64,000 nt of DNA from Xylophilus ampelinus (lineage in GTDB: Bacteria > Pseudomonadota > Gammaproteobacteria > Burkholderiales > Burkholderiaceae_C), in the NCBI RefSeq assembly GCF_901875635.1, contig NZ_CABFMN010000083.1, positions 1 to 64,000 on the forward strand. Direction: 5' to 3'. The notes beneath the pieces were generated by a model. The model was given only the letters and a program-made list of their open reading frames with translations. It was not told the origin of the DNA and ran no database searches. How positions within the stretch are numbered: position 1 is the stretch's first letter; each line of letters begins with the position of its first letter. Made by a program: the position numbers and the translations under genes. Of this stretch, positions 31,416 through 35,230 are shown one piece after another.

Positions 31416-31480
31416 AAAGTGCAATCGGCCTGCAGCGCCCGCCGATCGTGCGCCGCGGCCGAATTCGTCACGTTCGTTAC
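31416..31480 (+). repeat. 65-bp repeat, copy a
   Basis: Starts AAAGTGCAATCGG and ends TCGTCACGTTCGTTAC. It has the same length and the same ends as 46465-46529, with a variable GC-rich middle. It overlaps the stop codon of the DoxX gene on the other strand. Confidence 0.65.
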
Positions 31481-31938
31481 GATCGATCGATGCGCAGCAG
31501 GCGGTCCATCGACAGCCGCCCGCCGCCGCGGCCCACCAGGTACAGCAGCAACCCGGCCCATGACAGGTGGGTCGGCCAAGCGTCGGGGTACACGAAGACC
31601 TGGATCACCGCCGTCATGCCCAGCAGTGCGAGCGCGGCGAAGCGGGTGAACAGGCCCAGCACCAGCAGGATCGGAAAGGCATGCTCGGCGTAGGCGGCCA
31701 GGTGCGCAGCGATCTCGGGCGGCACCAGCGGCAGCTTGTACTCGGTGCGGAACAGCTCGATCGCGCCGTCGGTGACGTGCAGCCAGCCGTCGACCTTGGT
31801 ACGGCCCGAGAGCCAGAAGATGGCGCCGATGGCGACGCGGTCGACCAGCGCCAGCAGGTCGTGAGGCACCAGCGTGCCCAGCCGTTGGGTGAGGCGCTCC
31901 CATGCGCTGGAAGGGACGGTCGTGGTGGCGGATTTCAT
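31477..31938 (-). CDS. DoxX-family membrane protein of the bufferin operon
   Basis: A 153-residue protein with four predicted membrane helices, starting at the ATGA overlap with the DUF2063 gene. DoxX features are RVAIGAIFWLSGRTKVDGWLHV, EIAAHLAAYAEHAFPILLVLGLFTRFAALALLGMTAVIQVFVYPDAW and the basic tail. DoxX proteins commonly close bufferin-type operons, perhaps handling quinones or electrons for the DUF692 enzyme. The TAA stop lies in the 65-bp repeat. Confidence 0.85.
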   Translation of the reverse strand: MKSATTTVPSSAWERLTQRLGTLVPHDLLALVDRVAIGAIFWLSGRTKVDGWLHVTDGAIELFRTEYKLPLVPPEIAAHLAAYAEHAFPILLVLGLFTRFAALALLGMTAVIQVFVYPDAWPTHLSWAGLLLYLVGRGGGRLSMDRLLRIDRS

Positions 31939-32708
31939 GATGGGCTGCCGGTTGAGGTGGTGAAGGTGCCGGCCCGCAGCAACTGGGCGAGCAGGGCCGC
32001 GAGGTCGATGTCGGGGTGGGCGTCGAGCGCGGCAGCGGCGGCCTCGCCCAGGCTGTCGCCGCGTGCGCAGGCGTCGAGGAAGGCGCAGCCGCCGGCCGGC
32101 AGCGGCTGCCAGATCACCTCGGCGATCGGCCGCGTGAGCAGGGTGCTCTCGCCGGTCCAGTCCACGGCCTCGAGTGCCTCCAGCGCGGCCGCATCGCCGC
32201 TGCGGTTGGCCGACCAGATGCTGTGCAGCGGCAGGGTCTCGGACGCGTACCAGCGCGCCGCGGGGTGCGGTGCCAGGCGCAGGCGCGCCAGCGCTTCGGG
32301 CGCCAGCCCAGCCAATGCGTCGGCCGGCAGCACGCGGGCGTCGGCGGCCGTGTGCGATGCGGTCCACAGGCGGTCGAGCGCCGCGACGCCGCGCAGGTAG
32401 GGCAGTTCGCCGCCGGCCAGCTCGGCCAGCGTCTCGGCGAAGCCTTCGCCGTAGTGCAGCAGGCAGGGGTCGCGCGGGCGGTGTCCGGCCAGGTGGCGGG
32501 CGGCGGCCGCGCGCAGCCAGTCGCGGCCCACCAGCCGCGCGACGGCGGGGAAGTTGGCCTCCAACGCGTCGATGCAGCCCTTGTGCACGGTGTTCCGGTA
32601 GACCGCAAAGCCGGGCTGGGCAGTCCAATCGGGCGCGGCAGCACCATCTGCGTCATCGGCGAACAACGCGCCAACGAAATCGTGCTCGAAGGAGCGAACG
32701 GCCGTCAT
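31935..32708 (-). CDS. bufC: DUF2063 protein, BufC/HvfC-like partner of the MNIO enzyme
   Basis: A 257-residue soluble protein. The N-terminal DUF2063 domain is recognisable: FEHDFVGALFADD..., PGFAVYRNTVHKGCIDALEANFPAVARLVGRDWLRAAAARHL and HRPRDPCLLHYGEGFAETLAEL. Although annotated as DNA-binding in databases, this family acts with DUF692 enzymes as substrate-recruiting partner. It overlaps the DUF692 gene (ATGA) and the DoxX gene, so the three are tightly coupled. Confidence 0.85.
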   Translation of the reverse strand: MTAVRSFEHDFVGALFADDADGAAAPDWTAQPGFAVYRNTVHKGCIDALEANFPAVARLVGRDWLRAAAARHLAGHRPRDPCLLHYGEGFAETLAELAGGELPYLRGVAALDRLWTASHTAADARVLPADALAGLAPEALARLRLAPHPAARWYASETLPLHSIWSANRSGDAAALEALEAVDWTGESTLLTRPIAEVIWQPLPAGGCAFLDACARGDSLGEAAAAALDAHPDIDLAALLAQLLRAGTFTTSTGSPS

Positions 32709-33547
32709 GCCGGCACGCCGGTGGTGAGGCCGTCGGCGATCGCGGCGGCTTGCTCGCGCTCGGTCATGAGGTCGTGGAAGGCGGGCACATTGCCATCGCG
32801 TTCGACCAGTGTCGGCCGCGGCCCGGCGCGCTCGACGAAGTGCGCGTACAGCGACCACACCGCCGGCGCCACCGGGGCGTCGTGCGAGTCGATCAGCAGC
32901 GCCTCCCCATGCACCGGGTCGGCCGTGTGGCCGGCCAGGTGAATTTCCATCACGGCCTCGGCCGGGAAACGGTCGAGATAGTCCGCGGCCTCGAAGCCGA
33001 GGTTGCGCGACGAGACGTGCACGTTGTTGATGTCCAGCAGCAGGCCGCAACCGCTGCGCCGCGCCAGCTCGCGCAGGAAGTCCGTCTCTTCCCAGTCGTG
33101 GCCGGGCAGGTGCAGGTAGTGCGAGGGGTTCTCGATGGCGATGCGCCGCCCGAGGGCCTGCTGCACCTGGTCGACGTGCTCCACAAGCCGTCGCAGCAGC
33201 GCATGGCTGCGCGGGCAGGGCAGCAGGTCGGGCAGGTAGGCGCCCTCGAAGCGTGACCAGGCCAGGTGCTCCGAGACCAGCGCGGGCTCGAAGCGCCGCA
33301 CCAGCGCAGCGAGCCGCTGCAACTGGCGTGAATCGGGCGGCGCCTCGCCGGCGAGCGAGAGCGACACGCCGTGCAGCGACAGCGGATGCTGGTGGCGGAT
33401 CGCCTCCAGCCAGGCCAGGCGCGGGCCGCCCGCCACGCTGTAGTTCTCCGGATGGACCTCGAACCAGAGCCCCGGTGCGCGCGCGAAGAGCGCGGCGTCG
33501 AAGTGCTCGGGCTTGAGGCCCAGGCCGGCGGTCAACGGCGCGGACAT
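32705..33547 (-). CDS. bufB: DUF692 multinuclear non-heme iron oxidase (MNIO), BufB-like
   Basis: A 280-residue TIM-barrel enzyme of the DUF692/MNIO family. Expected metal ligands are visible in order: HPENY (E/N), LHGVSLSL (H), SEHLAW (E-H), IENPSHYL (E-N), DINNVHVSS (D, N-N, H), EIHLAGH (E-H..H) and DSHDAPV (D-H). MNIO enzymes modify cysteines in ribosomally made peptides; in bufferins they form copper-binding thiooxazoles. The precursor gene lies 18 bp upstream and the DUF2063 partner overlaps downstream. Confidence 0.9.
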   Translation of the reverse strand: MSAPLTAGLGLKPEHFDAALFARAPGLWFEVHPENYSVAGGPRLAWLEAIRHQHPLSLHGVSLSLAGEAPPDSRQLQRLAALVRRFEPALVSEHLAWSRFEGAYLPDLLPCPRSHALLRRLVEHVDQVQQALGRRIAIENPSHYLHLPGHDWEETDFLRELARRSGCGLLLDINNVHVSSRNLGFEAADYLDRFPAEAVMEIHLAGHTADPVHGEALLIDSHDAPVAPAVWSLYAHFVERAGPRPTLVERDGNVPAFHDLMTEREQAAAIADGLTTGVPA

Positions 33548-34002: not shown

Positions 34003-34020
34003 TCGGTGCCATGCCACGAA
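33995..34020 (+). promoter_or_regulatory. SigF-type promoter for the sigma/anti-sigma operon
   Basis: GTAACC (33995-34000), exactly 16 bases, then CGAA (34017-34020). It fits autoregulation by the sigma factor encoded downstream. Because the -10 element lies after the ATG at 34011, that ATG cannot be the start on this transcript; the ATG at 34044 is the next one in frame. Confidence 0.65.
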
Positions 34021-34043
34021 CAACCAACACAAGCCAGTCCCCG

Positions 34044-34592
34044 ATGAACGAGGTCGAGACGCAGTTGCGCGGCCTGTTCCTGCGTGGCCTGGAGGGAGAC
34101 GCCGCCGCCTACCGCGATTGCCTGCAACAGCTGGCGCGTTATCTGCGCGCCTTCCTCGGCAGGCGCCTGTTCGGCTGGCCCGATGATGTGGAAGACCTCG
34201 TCCAGGAATGCCTGCTCGCCATGCACAACCAGCGCCATACCTACCAGAGCGACCAGCCCCTGACGGCCTGGGCGCATGCGATCGCACGCTACAAGCTCAT
34301 CGACCTGCTGCGCGCGAAGTCGGTGCGCGAGGCGCTGCACGACCCGCTGGATGACGACATGGAACTCTTCGCCGATTCGGCCACCGAGGCCAGCGACGCG
34401 CGGCGCGATGTGCAGGGGCTACTGGCCGAGTTGCCCGACCGGCACCGGCTGCCGATCGTGCACGTCAAGCTGCAGGGCCTGTCGGTCGCGGAGACGGCAA
34501 AACTCACCGGCATGTCGGAGTCGGCGGTGAAGGTCGGCATCCACCGGGGCCTGAAGGCGCTGGCAGCGCGCATGCGCAAGGACGCGGCATGA
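34044..34592 (+). CDS. ECF sigma factor, SigF-like
   Basis: A 182-residue ECF sigma factor. Region 2 is GWPDDVEDLVQECLLAMHNQRHTYQSDQPLTAWAHAIARYKLIDLLRA, and region 4 is LAELPDRHRLPIVHVKLQGLSVAETAKLTGMSESAVKVGIHRGLKAL. I start it at 34044 (MNEVETQLRG), because the predicted promoter's CGAA is at 34017-34020, downstream of the earlier in-frame ATG at 34011. It overlaps the membrane anti-sigma gene by ATGA and is divergent from the bufferin operon, which has the same promoter motif. Confidence 0.88.
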   Translation: MNEVETQLRGLFLRGLEGDAAAYRDCLQQLARYLRAFLGRRLFGWPDDVEDLVQECLLAMHNQRHTYQSDQPLTAWAHAIARYKLIDLLRAKSVREALHDPLDDDMELFADSATEASDARRDVQGLLAELPDRHRLPIVHVKLQGLSVAETAKLTGMSESAVKVGIHRGLKALAARMRKDAA

Positions 34593-35230
34593 AGACCGAC
34601 GATTTCGTGGCCATGCTGGCGGCGGGGGCCGAGCCTGTGCCGCGCCGCGCAGTGAGCCGCCGGCTGTGGTGGGCGCTGGGCCTGAGCCTGCCCGTGGCGC
34701 TGGCCATCATGCAGGCCGAATACGGCATGCGCCGCGACATCGTGCAGGCGATGTTCTGGCCGATGTTCTGGGTCAAGGTGCTGATGCCCGCCTGCATCGG
34801 CGTGGCCGGCTACGTGATGGTGCAGCGGTTGGCGCGGCCGGGCGTCGCGGTGCGGCGGGCCTGGCTCGGCATCGCGCTGCCGGTGCTCGCGCTCTGGGTG
34901 CACGCGGCCATGGCGTGGGCGACGATGCCCGAGACGGCGCGCATGCCGGCCCTCATGGGAAGCACATGGCGCACCTGCGTCTTCAACATCGCGCTGATCT
35001 CGCTGCCCATGTTCGTGGCAGCACTGCTGGCGCTGCGTGGACTGGCGCCGACGCGGCCGGCTGCGGCCGGCGCCGCTGCCGGGGCGCTGGCCGCGGGTGC
35101 GGGCGCGGCCGTGTACGCCCTGCATTGCCCGGAACTCACGGCGCCGTTCCTGGCGGTGTGGTACGTGCTGGGGATGGCACTGCCCGCGGCAGCAGGAGCG
35201 CTGATCGGCCCGCGCTTGCTGCGCTGGTAG
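34589..35230 (+). CDS. NrsF-like membrane anti-sigma factor (DUF1109)
   Basis: A 213-residue protein with a short cytoplasmic N-terminus (MKTDDFVAMLAAGAEPVPRRAVSRRLW) and six predicted membrane helices. This is the NrsF/DUF1109 pattern; in Caulobacter NrsF holds SigF at the membrane and releases it on copper or redox stress. Cysteines that might sense this lie in VLMPACIGVAG, STWRTCVFN and ALHCPELTAPF. Translational overlap with the sigma gene gives matched amounts. Confidence 0.87.
   Translation: MKTDDFVAMLAAGAEPVPRRAVSRRLWWALGLSLPVALAIMQAEYGMRRDIVQAMFWPMFWVKVLMPACIGVAGYVMVQRLARPGVAVRRAWLGIALPVLALWVHAAMAWATMPETARMPALMGSTWRTCVFNIALISLPMFVAALLALRGLAPTRPAAAGAAAGALAAGAGAAVYALHCPELTAPFLAVWYVLGMALPAAAGALIGPRLLRW

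What the first reader, a model, noticed from the sequence alone, without database searches (positions are those of the whole stretch)
31477..35230. Complete bufferin-type RiPP locus with its own sigma/anti-sigma pair
Four tightly coupled genes (DUF2282 precursor with four cysteines, DUF692 MNIO enzyme, DUF2063 partner, DoxX) face a SigF-like ECF sigma factor and an NrsF-like membrane protein. Bufferins are a recently described class of copper-binding modified peptides. Having precursor, maturation genes and the dedicated regulator in one divergent locus makes this a self-contained copper-stress module outside Caulobacter. The Cys38/49/57/78 pattern predicts which residues are modified.
Basis: partly seen in the sequence, partly recalled or inferred. 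Interest (0 to 1): 0.8.

Follow-up and report, generated by a model that had tools for sequence, protein, structure and literature searches.

The report
Copper-binding peptide locus with own switch
This is a complete gene set for a bufferin, a small copper-binding modified peptide, facing the sigma factor and anti-sigma factor that probably switch it on; this arrangement is already described in several bacteria, and the added part is a clear promoter signature that ties the two halves together.

Summary
On the minus strand lie a Buf1/DUF2282 precursor (C38, C49, C57, C78), a BufB-type MNIO, a DUF2063 partner and DoxX; facing them are an ECF sigma factor and NrsF. The reading as a bufferin locus with a dedicated regulator holds but is not new: the same divergent module is published in Caulobacter, Cupriavidus metallidurans (gigPABT/rpoQ-rsqA) and Sinorhizobium (RpoE7, ECF16). 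In published Buf1 only the central cysteines (here C49, C57) are modified; the outer pair forms a disulfide.

What I add is regulatory. The 190-nt intergenic region holds back-to-back SigF-type promoters, GTAACC-N16/17-CGAA. Among 81 precursor loci of 120 relatives, an exact site occurs in 12 of 25 loci of NrsF-positive genomes and 0 of 56 of NrsF-negative ones. In seven Variovorax genomes where operon and sigF lie apart, each has exactly two exact sites, one before each half. C. metallidurans carries exact sites before gigP and rpoQ, where most passages I read call RpoQ control undemonstrated (one paper asserts it). A conserved GCACAAT box between the promoters is unexplained. New member of a known kind.

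The parts
33566..33853 (-). bufA: DUF2282 / Buf1 bufferin precursor, 95 aa, probable Sec signal peptide ending AMA-Q (A23, read by eye), four cysteines 38/49/57/78
   Evidence: PF10048 89.2 bits; cysteines invariant in 80 of 80
32705..33547 (-). bufB: MNIO (DUF692) bufferin maturase, 280 aa
   Evidence: PF05114 327 bits; NF050167 MNIO_BufB 357.9 bits, over cut-off 310
31935..32708 (-). bufC: DUF2063 partner protein, 257 aa
   Evidence: PF09836 69 bits
31477..31938 (-). doxX: DoxX-family membrane protein, 153 aa
   Evidence: PF07681 68.9 bits
34044..34592 (+). sigF-like ECF sigma factor, 182 aa
   Evidence: PF04542, PF08281; NF009188 over cut-off; start chosen because 34011 lies inside the predicted promoter
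34589..35230 (+). nrsF: NrsF-family anti-sigma factor, 213 aa, conserved C130 and C180
   Evidence: PF06532 240 bits; C130 in 67 of 67, C180 in 66 of 67 (one gap) aligned NrsF
33925..33951 (-). predicted SigF promoter of the buf operon: GTAACC (33946-33951, read on -), 17-nt spacer, CGAA (33925-33928)
   Evidence: matches Caulobacter GTAACC-N16-CGAA (PMC3511200) apart from the spacer
33995..34020 (+). predicted SigF promoter of sigF-nrsF: GTAACC (33995-34000), N16, CGAA (34017-34020)
33944..34002 (.). perfect 14-nt inverted repeat (33944-33957 / 33989-34002) holding the two -35 boxes
   Evidence: arm length varies among relatives
33960..33978 (+). element of unknown role between the -35 boxes: GCACAAT (33960-33966) and A-tract (33974-33978)

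Best explanation
A Buf1-type bufferin gene cluster under its own ECF16-type switch. Proposed chain: thiophilic metal (copper most likely) in the periplasm acts on NrsF through its conserved Cys pair; SigF is released; it transcribes bufABC-doxX and its own operon from two back-to-back GTAACC-N16/17-CGAA promoters; BufB with BufC converts C49 and C57 of the precursor to 5-thiooxazoles in the cytoplasm; the peptide is exported by Sec, C38-C78 close as a disulfide, and the mature peptide holds copper in the periplasm. Shown here: genes, families, gene order, cysteine and promoter conservation. Inferred from relatives: induction, chemistry, copper binding, NrsF mechanism. DoxX role unknown.
For: HMM assignments. 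Cysteine conservation in BufA (80 of 80) and NrsF (67 of 67 and 66 of 67). SigF/NrsF divergent to the precursor in 66 of the 80 loci kept. Exact promoter: sigF side 65 of 67, buf side 52 of 67, both 50 of 67 divergent rows, window included. Exact site upstream of the precursor tracks NrsF in the genome: 12 of 25 vs 0 of 56 loci, reversed pattern 0 and 0 (Fisher 7e-8, not corrected for kinship). Nearest genome G001 has two exact sites in 5.1 Mb, both in this locus, reversed-pattern control none. Seven of seven Variovorax genomes with operon and sigF apart have one NrsF with SigF beside it and exactly two exact sites, one before each half. Published: SigF controls the homologous operon in Caulobacter and NrsF C131/C181 matter; copper induces it and a sigF mutant is copper-sensitive; RpoE7 controls the homologue in S. 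meliloti; Buf1 carries thiooxazoles and chelates copper.
Against: No expression, mass or copper data for this organism. 15 of 67 divergent rows lack an exact buf-side site (12 have one mismatch, 3 have none within one mismatch) and 2 lack an exact sigF-side site (both one mismatch); 13 of 25 loci of NrsF-positive genomes lack an exact site. The motif is not specific by sequence alone: it occurs somewhere in 83 of 120 relatives, in many of them no more often than its reversed control (listing capped), and in the seven Variovorax the reversed control hits 0 to 3 times per genome, so the weight rests on position. The one-mismatch form is weak: 18 of 25 vs 1 of 56, but its reversed control hits 0 of 25 and 11 of 56. 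In C. metallidurans deletion of rpoQ did not abolish gig expression and rpoQ-rsqA was reported RpoD-dependent. In S. meliloti, H2O2, cadmium and chromate did not induce the homologous promoters. The window's own assembly is not held, so its regulon could not be scanned.
Confidence: 0.9

Rival explanations
1. The switch senses thiol or oxidant stress in general (gold, silver, cadmium, chromate, hypochlorite) and copper is only one trigger; the bufferin is one effector of a periplasmic sulfur-protection response.
For: Caulobacter SigF regulon includes a YedY/MsrP-type sulfoxide reductase and responds to chromate and cadmium. SigF/NrsF in perchlorate reducers goes with yedYZ and a methionine-rich peptide against hypochlorite. 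Among bufferin-less NrsF genomes here, a site precedes MsrA plus a cytochrome b561 (L213), and in L205 a site lies about 700 nt before a molybdopterin oxidoreductase. C. metallidurans gig is induced by gold.
Against: In G001 and in seven Variovorax the exact motif occurs only at the bufferin operon and sigF, so there the switch looks dedicated to the bufferin; degenerate sites were not scanned genome-wide.
Confidence: 0.3
2. The buf operon is driven mainly by another sigma factor or regulator, and SigF is dispensable, as the rpoQ deletion suggested in C. metallidurans.
For: rpoQ deletion raised gig expression under metal; a conserved box in the spacer shows that something else may act there.
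Against: The buf-side SigF site is present even where operon and sigF lie apart (7 of 7) and its exact form is absent from 56 of 56 loci of NrsF-negative genomes.
Confidence: 0.07
3. The locus is a decayed or silent copy.
For: None found; only the lack of expression data.
Against: All frames open with the conserved cysteines, promoter boxes present on both sides and overlapping stop/start codons.
Confidence: 0.02

Closest known systems
Caulobacter crescentus/vibrioides CC3252-CC3257 (nrsF-sigF / bufA1B1C1-doxX)
   Same: Same gene families (DUF2282, DUF692, DUF2063, DoxX, sigF, nrsF); GTAACC-N16-CGAA promoters mapped before CC3254 and sigF; Cys pair in NrsF; copper-induced (PMC3511200 passages; PMC8224329 passages)
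   Different: Spacer of the window's buf promoter is 17 nt; Caulobacter has a second SigF-dependent DUF692 operon and a sulfoxide reductase in the regulon. No Caulobacter sequence was aligned here
Cupriavidus metallidurans CH34 gigPABT / rpoQ-rsqA
   Same: Same six-gene divergon; GigA 65.6% identical to the window's MNIO over 98% of it; exact SigF-type site before both gigP and rpoQ
   Different: No gig promoter reported and RpoQ control called undemonstrated in passages read, though one paper states it; no GCACAAT box in the spacer
Sinorhizobium meliloti SMb20530-20527 / rpoE7-ecfR7 (group ECF16)
   Same: DUF692/DUF2063 operon controlled by the sigma factor next to it, GTAACA...CGAA promoters on both units (PMC6180224 passages)
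   Different: -35 box GTAACA; no induction by H2O2, cadmium or chromate seen there
SigF/NrsF with yedYZ and mrpX in perchlorate-reduction islands
   Same: Same sigma/anti-sigma names (PMC4623255 passages)
   Different: Goes with methionine-sulfoxide cycling, no bufferin named
Oxazolin and fontiphorin (Haemophilus Hvf, Fontimonas Fon); 'captophorins'
   Same: MNIO plus DUF2063 partner making 5-thiooxazoles on a copper-associated peptide; the paper places bufferins in the same class (PMC13097082 passages)
   Different: Those two precursors carry EGKCG repeats, not DUF2282

Membership tests
Buf1 bufferin cluster | Precursor matches DUF2282 and has four conserved cysteines | tested here: met
   PF10048 89.2 bits; C38/49/57/78 in 80 of 80
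Buf1 bufferin cluster | Sec signal peptide on the precursor | tested here: inconclusive
   Hydrophobic N-terminus with AMA-Q read by eye; no signal-peptide predictor was run
Buf1 bufferin cluster | MNIO (BufB) and DUF2063 partner directly downstream in the order bufABC | tested here: met
Buf1 bufferin cluster | Thiooxazoles on the central cysteines, outer cysteines in a disulfide | not testable with these tools
   Published for Buf1 (PMC12452194)
Buf1 bufferin cluster | Copper binding and protection under copper excess | not testable with these tools
   Published for Caulobacter (PMC12452194)
SigF/NrsF (group ECF16) regulatory pair | ECF sigma with regions 2 and 4 beside an NrsF-family protein in one operon | tested here: met
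   (membrane topology not tested; the ECF16 label is from PMC6180224, no ECF classifier was run)
SigF/NrsF (group ECF16) regulatory pair | Two conserved cysteines equivalent to C131 and C181 of Caulobacter NrsF | tested here: met
   C130 67 of 67, C180 66 of 67; the equivalence to C131/C181 rests on position and family, no Caulobacter sequence was aligned
SigF/NrsF (group ECF16) regulatory pair | GTAACC-N16-CGAA promoter before target operon and sigF | tested here: met
   sigF side exact; buf side exact boxes but a 17-nt spacer
NCBIfam AntiSigF_NrsF equivalog NF042994 | Score over 300 bits | tested here: not met
   169.2 bits; so an NrsF-family protein (Pfam), not the narrow equivalog

The most novel reading that the evidence does not exclude
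The 190-nt divergon is a compound control element: two SigF promoters back to back at a near-fixed distance (-35 to -35 gap 42-46 nt in 39 of 51 measurable rows), with a third conserved box, GCACAAT, between them in about half the loci. Where operon and sigF lie apart (seven Variovorax), GCACAAT stays 34-35 nt before the sigF -35 box in 7 of 7 and is missing before bufA in 7 of 7, while an A/T run of five or more accompanies both promoters (7 of 7 and 6 of 7). So sigF may have a second, unrecorded input (operator or basal promoter), possibly of the kind left open as the 'still unknown' regulator of sigF in Caulobacter, and each promoter an UP-like booster. Against: C. metallidurans has no such box, and the Caulobacter region was not examined.
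Probability: 0.25. Interest if true: 0.45.

Novelty: new member of a known kind. Interest (0 to 1): 0.3.

Why it matters
The locus itself is one more bufferin cluster of a published kind. The useful part is that the promoter signature predicts, in a base-exact way, that the sigma factor beside the operon controls it in Comamonadaceae and in C. metallidurans, where papers of 2023-2026 leave the role of RpoQ in gig expression open (passages; one 2020 paper asserts it). The nearest genomes suggest a very small regulon, which would make the system a clean metal-sensor testbed.

Tried and rejected
Rejected: that the finding is a new regulatory arrangement (searches show precedents). Rejected: BufA2 identity of the precursor (NF050166 sub-threshold). 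Rejected: the 14-nt inverted repeat as an operator in its own right; arms beyond the -35 boxes vary, total length 6 to 15 in 51 rows and no exact pair in 16. Weighed and not adopted: GCACAAT as a housekeeping -10 box for sigF; no conserved -35 partner was seen by eye upstream. The one-mismatch motif count was kept as secondary because its reversed control is high (11 of 56). Led nowhere: first bufferin paper search (swamped by 'buffering'); PMC9045368 holds none of the searched terms in its main text; the original bufferin paper, by a recalled DOI, is not held. Asticcacaulis L223 gave no exact site.

I had also called the Pseudomonas plasmid locus a whole divergon; one search found no SigF gene in the 8.8 kb held.

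Rows dropped: L001-L030 (from the genome search, partly the same genomes as L031-L110) were left out of the motif and alignment counts; L056 has no precursor on its contig; L095, L101, L105 lie at contig edges and were left out of the trans test; one NrsF row under 140 bits (L095) was left out of the NrsF alignment; 16 of 67 rows without an exact box pair were left out of the gap count; L135, cut at a contig end, was counted as lacking a site.
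Full report
What is there. The window is G+C-rich and its nearest named relatives are Xenophilus (Comamonadaceae): the MNIO is 90-93% identical to L031-L035, of which L033-L035 are titled Xenophilus and the other two are metagenome bins; the window's own assembly is not held. At 31477-35230 there are six genes. On the minus strand, in transcription order: a 95-aa DUF2282 precursor (33566-33853), a 280-aa MNIO (32705-33547), a 257-aa DUF2063 protein (31935-32708) and a 153-aa DoxX protein (31477-31938). On the plus strand: an ECF sigma factor (34044-34592) and an NrsF-family protein (34589-35230). 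All six pass Pfam's curated cut-offs. The MNIO passes NCBI's bufferin-maturase model; the precursor does not pass the BufA2 model, and NrsF does not pass the narrow NrsF equivalog. Three of the gene junctions overlap by 4 nt.

Cysteines. The precursor's cysteines are 38, 49, 57 and 78, each conserved in 80 of 80 aligned precursors, window included. In published Buf1 the central two are modified and the outer two form a disulfide (PMC12452194, section 14 read). The predicted modified residues are therefore C49 and C57, not all four. NrsF keeps C130 (67 of 67) and C180 (66 of 67, one gap), at the places of the Caulobacter pair C131/C181 whose replacement raises basal expression (PMC3511200, passages); no Caulobacter sequence was aligned here.

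The promoter region. The intergenic stretch holds a perfect 14-nt inverted repeat, each arm with GTAACC, the -35 box of Caulobacter SigF promoters (GTAACC-N16-CGAA). Reading each way there is a full site: N16 towards sigF and N17 towards the precursor. Of the 80 loci kept from genome contigs (best 80 of 493 that encode a relative), 79 have a precursor; with the window that makes 80 rows, of which 67 have a divergent sigma gene (66 loci plus the window). In those 67, an exact site (N16 or N17) is present on the sigF side in 65, on the buf side in 52, on both in 50; of the 15 missing buf-side sites 12 have one mismatch and three none within one mismatch; the two missing sigF-side sites have one mismatch. 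The 17-nt spacer occurs in seven rows, which by the listing are the window and its close relatives L031-L035 and L106; all 65 sigF-side sites have 16.

Test not chosen by motif. In 120 relatives, NrsF over the cut-off occurs in 32 genomes and DUF2282 in 68 (81 places). I fetched all 81 upstream regions. An exact site lies upstream in 12 of 25 loci of NrsF-positive genomes and 0 of 56 of NrsF-negative ones; the reversed pattern gives 0 of 25 and 0 of 56. With one mismatch and spacers 15-18 the counts are 18 of 25 and 1 of 56, but the reversed control then gives 0 of 25 and 11 of 56, so only the exact form is clean. Fisher's P is 7e-8 for the exact form, without correction for kinship.

Genome-wide. 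In G001, nearest to the window, the pattern occurs twice, both in this locus, reversed control none. G003 and G014 also have two, both here (control one each); G013 has three (control one), G010 four (control none). G010's third site precedes a second MNIO gene whose upstream gene encodes a peptide with six cysteines, four of them in Cys-Lys motifs, a Buf2-like arrangement; the fourth is unassigned.

Operon apart from its sigma factor. Thirteen of the 80 rows lack a sigma gene in the stretch held. Three are at contig edges. I tested the other ten. Seven Variovorax genomes have an exact site before the precursor: each has one NrsF elsewhere, with a SigF gene beside it (7 of 7), and exactly two exact sites in the genome, one about 400 nt before the MNIO gene and one about 600 nt before nrsF, 14 of 14 sites accounted for by coordinates; the reversed control hits 0 to 3 times in the same genomes. 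The other three (L062, L092, L104) have no NrsF and no site within 300 nt of the precursor; their one, one and two genome hits lie elsewhere. This is good evidence that the site, not mere neighbourhood, links sigma factor and operon.

C. metallidurans. The CH34 chromid stretch was fetched. Before gigP lies an exact GTAACC-N16-CGAA and before rpoQ another. PMC10304878 (section 22 read) says no gig promoter was found and that RpoQ dependence lacks evidence; [quoted passage not shown] PMC13192273 (passages) notes that it remains unexplained why RpoQ is not essential. PMC7563307 (passages) states RpoQ control. In my searches (listings only) and the passages read I saw no paper naming this site for gig; among the 12 papers the only bacterial one with GTAACC in its text is the Caulobacter one. 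Many papers are not in the library.

A third element. Between the two -35 boxes the centre of the spacer is 57% A+T against 34% for the loci, and richer than its locus in 59 of 59 (60 rows with the window). ATTNTG (GCACAAT read from the other strand) lies at -17 to -13 before the buf-side box in 43 of 76 sites, 37 of them at exactly -15; 500 shuffles give a mean of 0.3 and at most 4. A run of five A or T lies at -38 to -18 in 58 of 76, against 1 of 76 at -60 to -40, a region constrained by the sigF promoter. In the seven Variovorax with the halves apart, GCACAAT is 34-35 nt before the sigF -35 box in 7 of 7 and absent before bufA in 7 of 7, while an A/T run of five accompanies sigF in 7 of 7 and bufA in 6 of 7. 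The box is missing from 33 of 76 sites, Pseudomonas and Herbaspirillum loci among them, and from CH34. Related sequences share ancestry, so this is suggestive. Its role is open.

Older role of the switch. Nine NrsF-positive genomes here have no DUF2282. I looked at ORF lists for all nine plus G050 and ran Pfam on three proteins of two of them: a MsrA and a cytochrome b561 behind a site (L213), and a molybdopterin oxidoreductase about 700 nt downstream of a site (L205). With Caulobacter's YedY and the perchlorate-reducer yedYZ/mrpX system this fits a family of switches for periplasmic sulfur damage, of which the bufferin divergon is one branch; that is an inference.

Verdict. A complete, intact Buf1 bufferin cluster with a probably dedicated SigF/NrsF switch: a new member of a known kind. 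Induction by copper, the peptide's chemistry and DoxX's role are untested here.

Noticed in passing
window 33960-33978: GCACAAT box and A-tract between the two SigF -35 boxes, the box conserved in 43 of 76 sites at a near-fixed place; role unknown.
   Followed up: partly
L045, L063, L066, L068, L098 (between sigF and bufA): An extra secreted-looking peptide of 92-120 aa with repeated FPSA-type motifs and no cysteine; a SigF-type site faces it. The two tested have no Pfam match. L063 also has a gene resembling a catalase-type peroxidase (by eye).
   Followed up: partly
L217:3425-4700 (G010, second locus): Exact SigF-type site before a second MNIO gene with a Cys-Lys-rich Buf2-like precursor that has no Pfam match: possible trans control of a second bufferin.
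   Followed up: partly
L097, L103: Two NrsF genes at one locus, one of them between sigF and bufA; Asticcacaulis L223 is annotated with two NrsF genes in tandem.
   Followed up: partly
L222 (Pseudomonas sp. plasmid NZ_CP083747.1): A bufferin operon on a plasmid typed as conjugative, facing NrsF with exact sites both ways but without any SigF gene in the 8.8 kb held: an anti-sigma without its sigma. MNIO relatives occur in 352 plasmid records, 73 of them Escherichia.
   Followed up: partly
window 29943-31307 (-) and 35323-36879 (-): Flanking genes are a GTP cyclohydrolase-like protein and a HerA-like helicase; two more genes to 39633 gave no family and an AMP-binding enzyme. No copper gene among these four; the rest of the window was not annotated.
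   Followed up: partly
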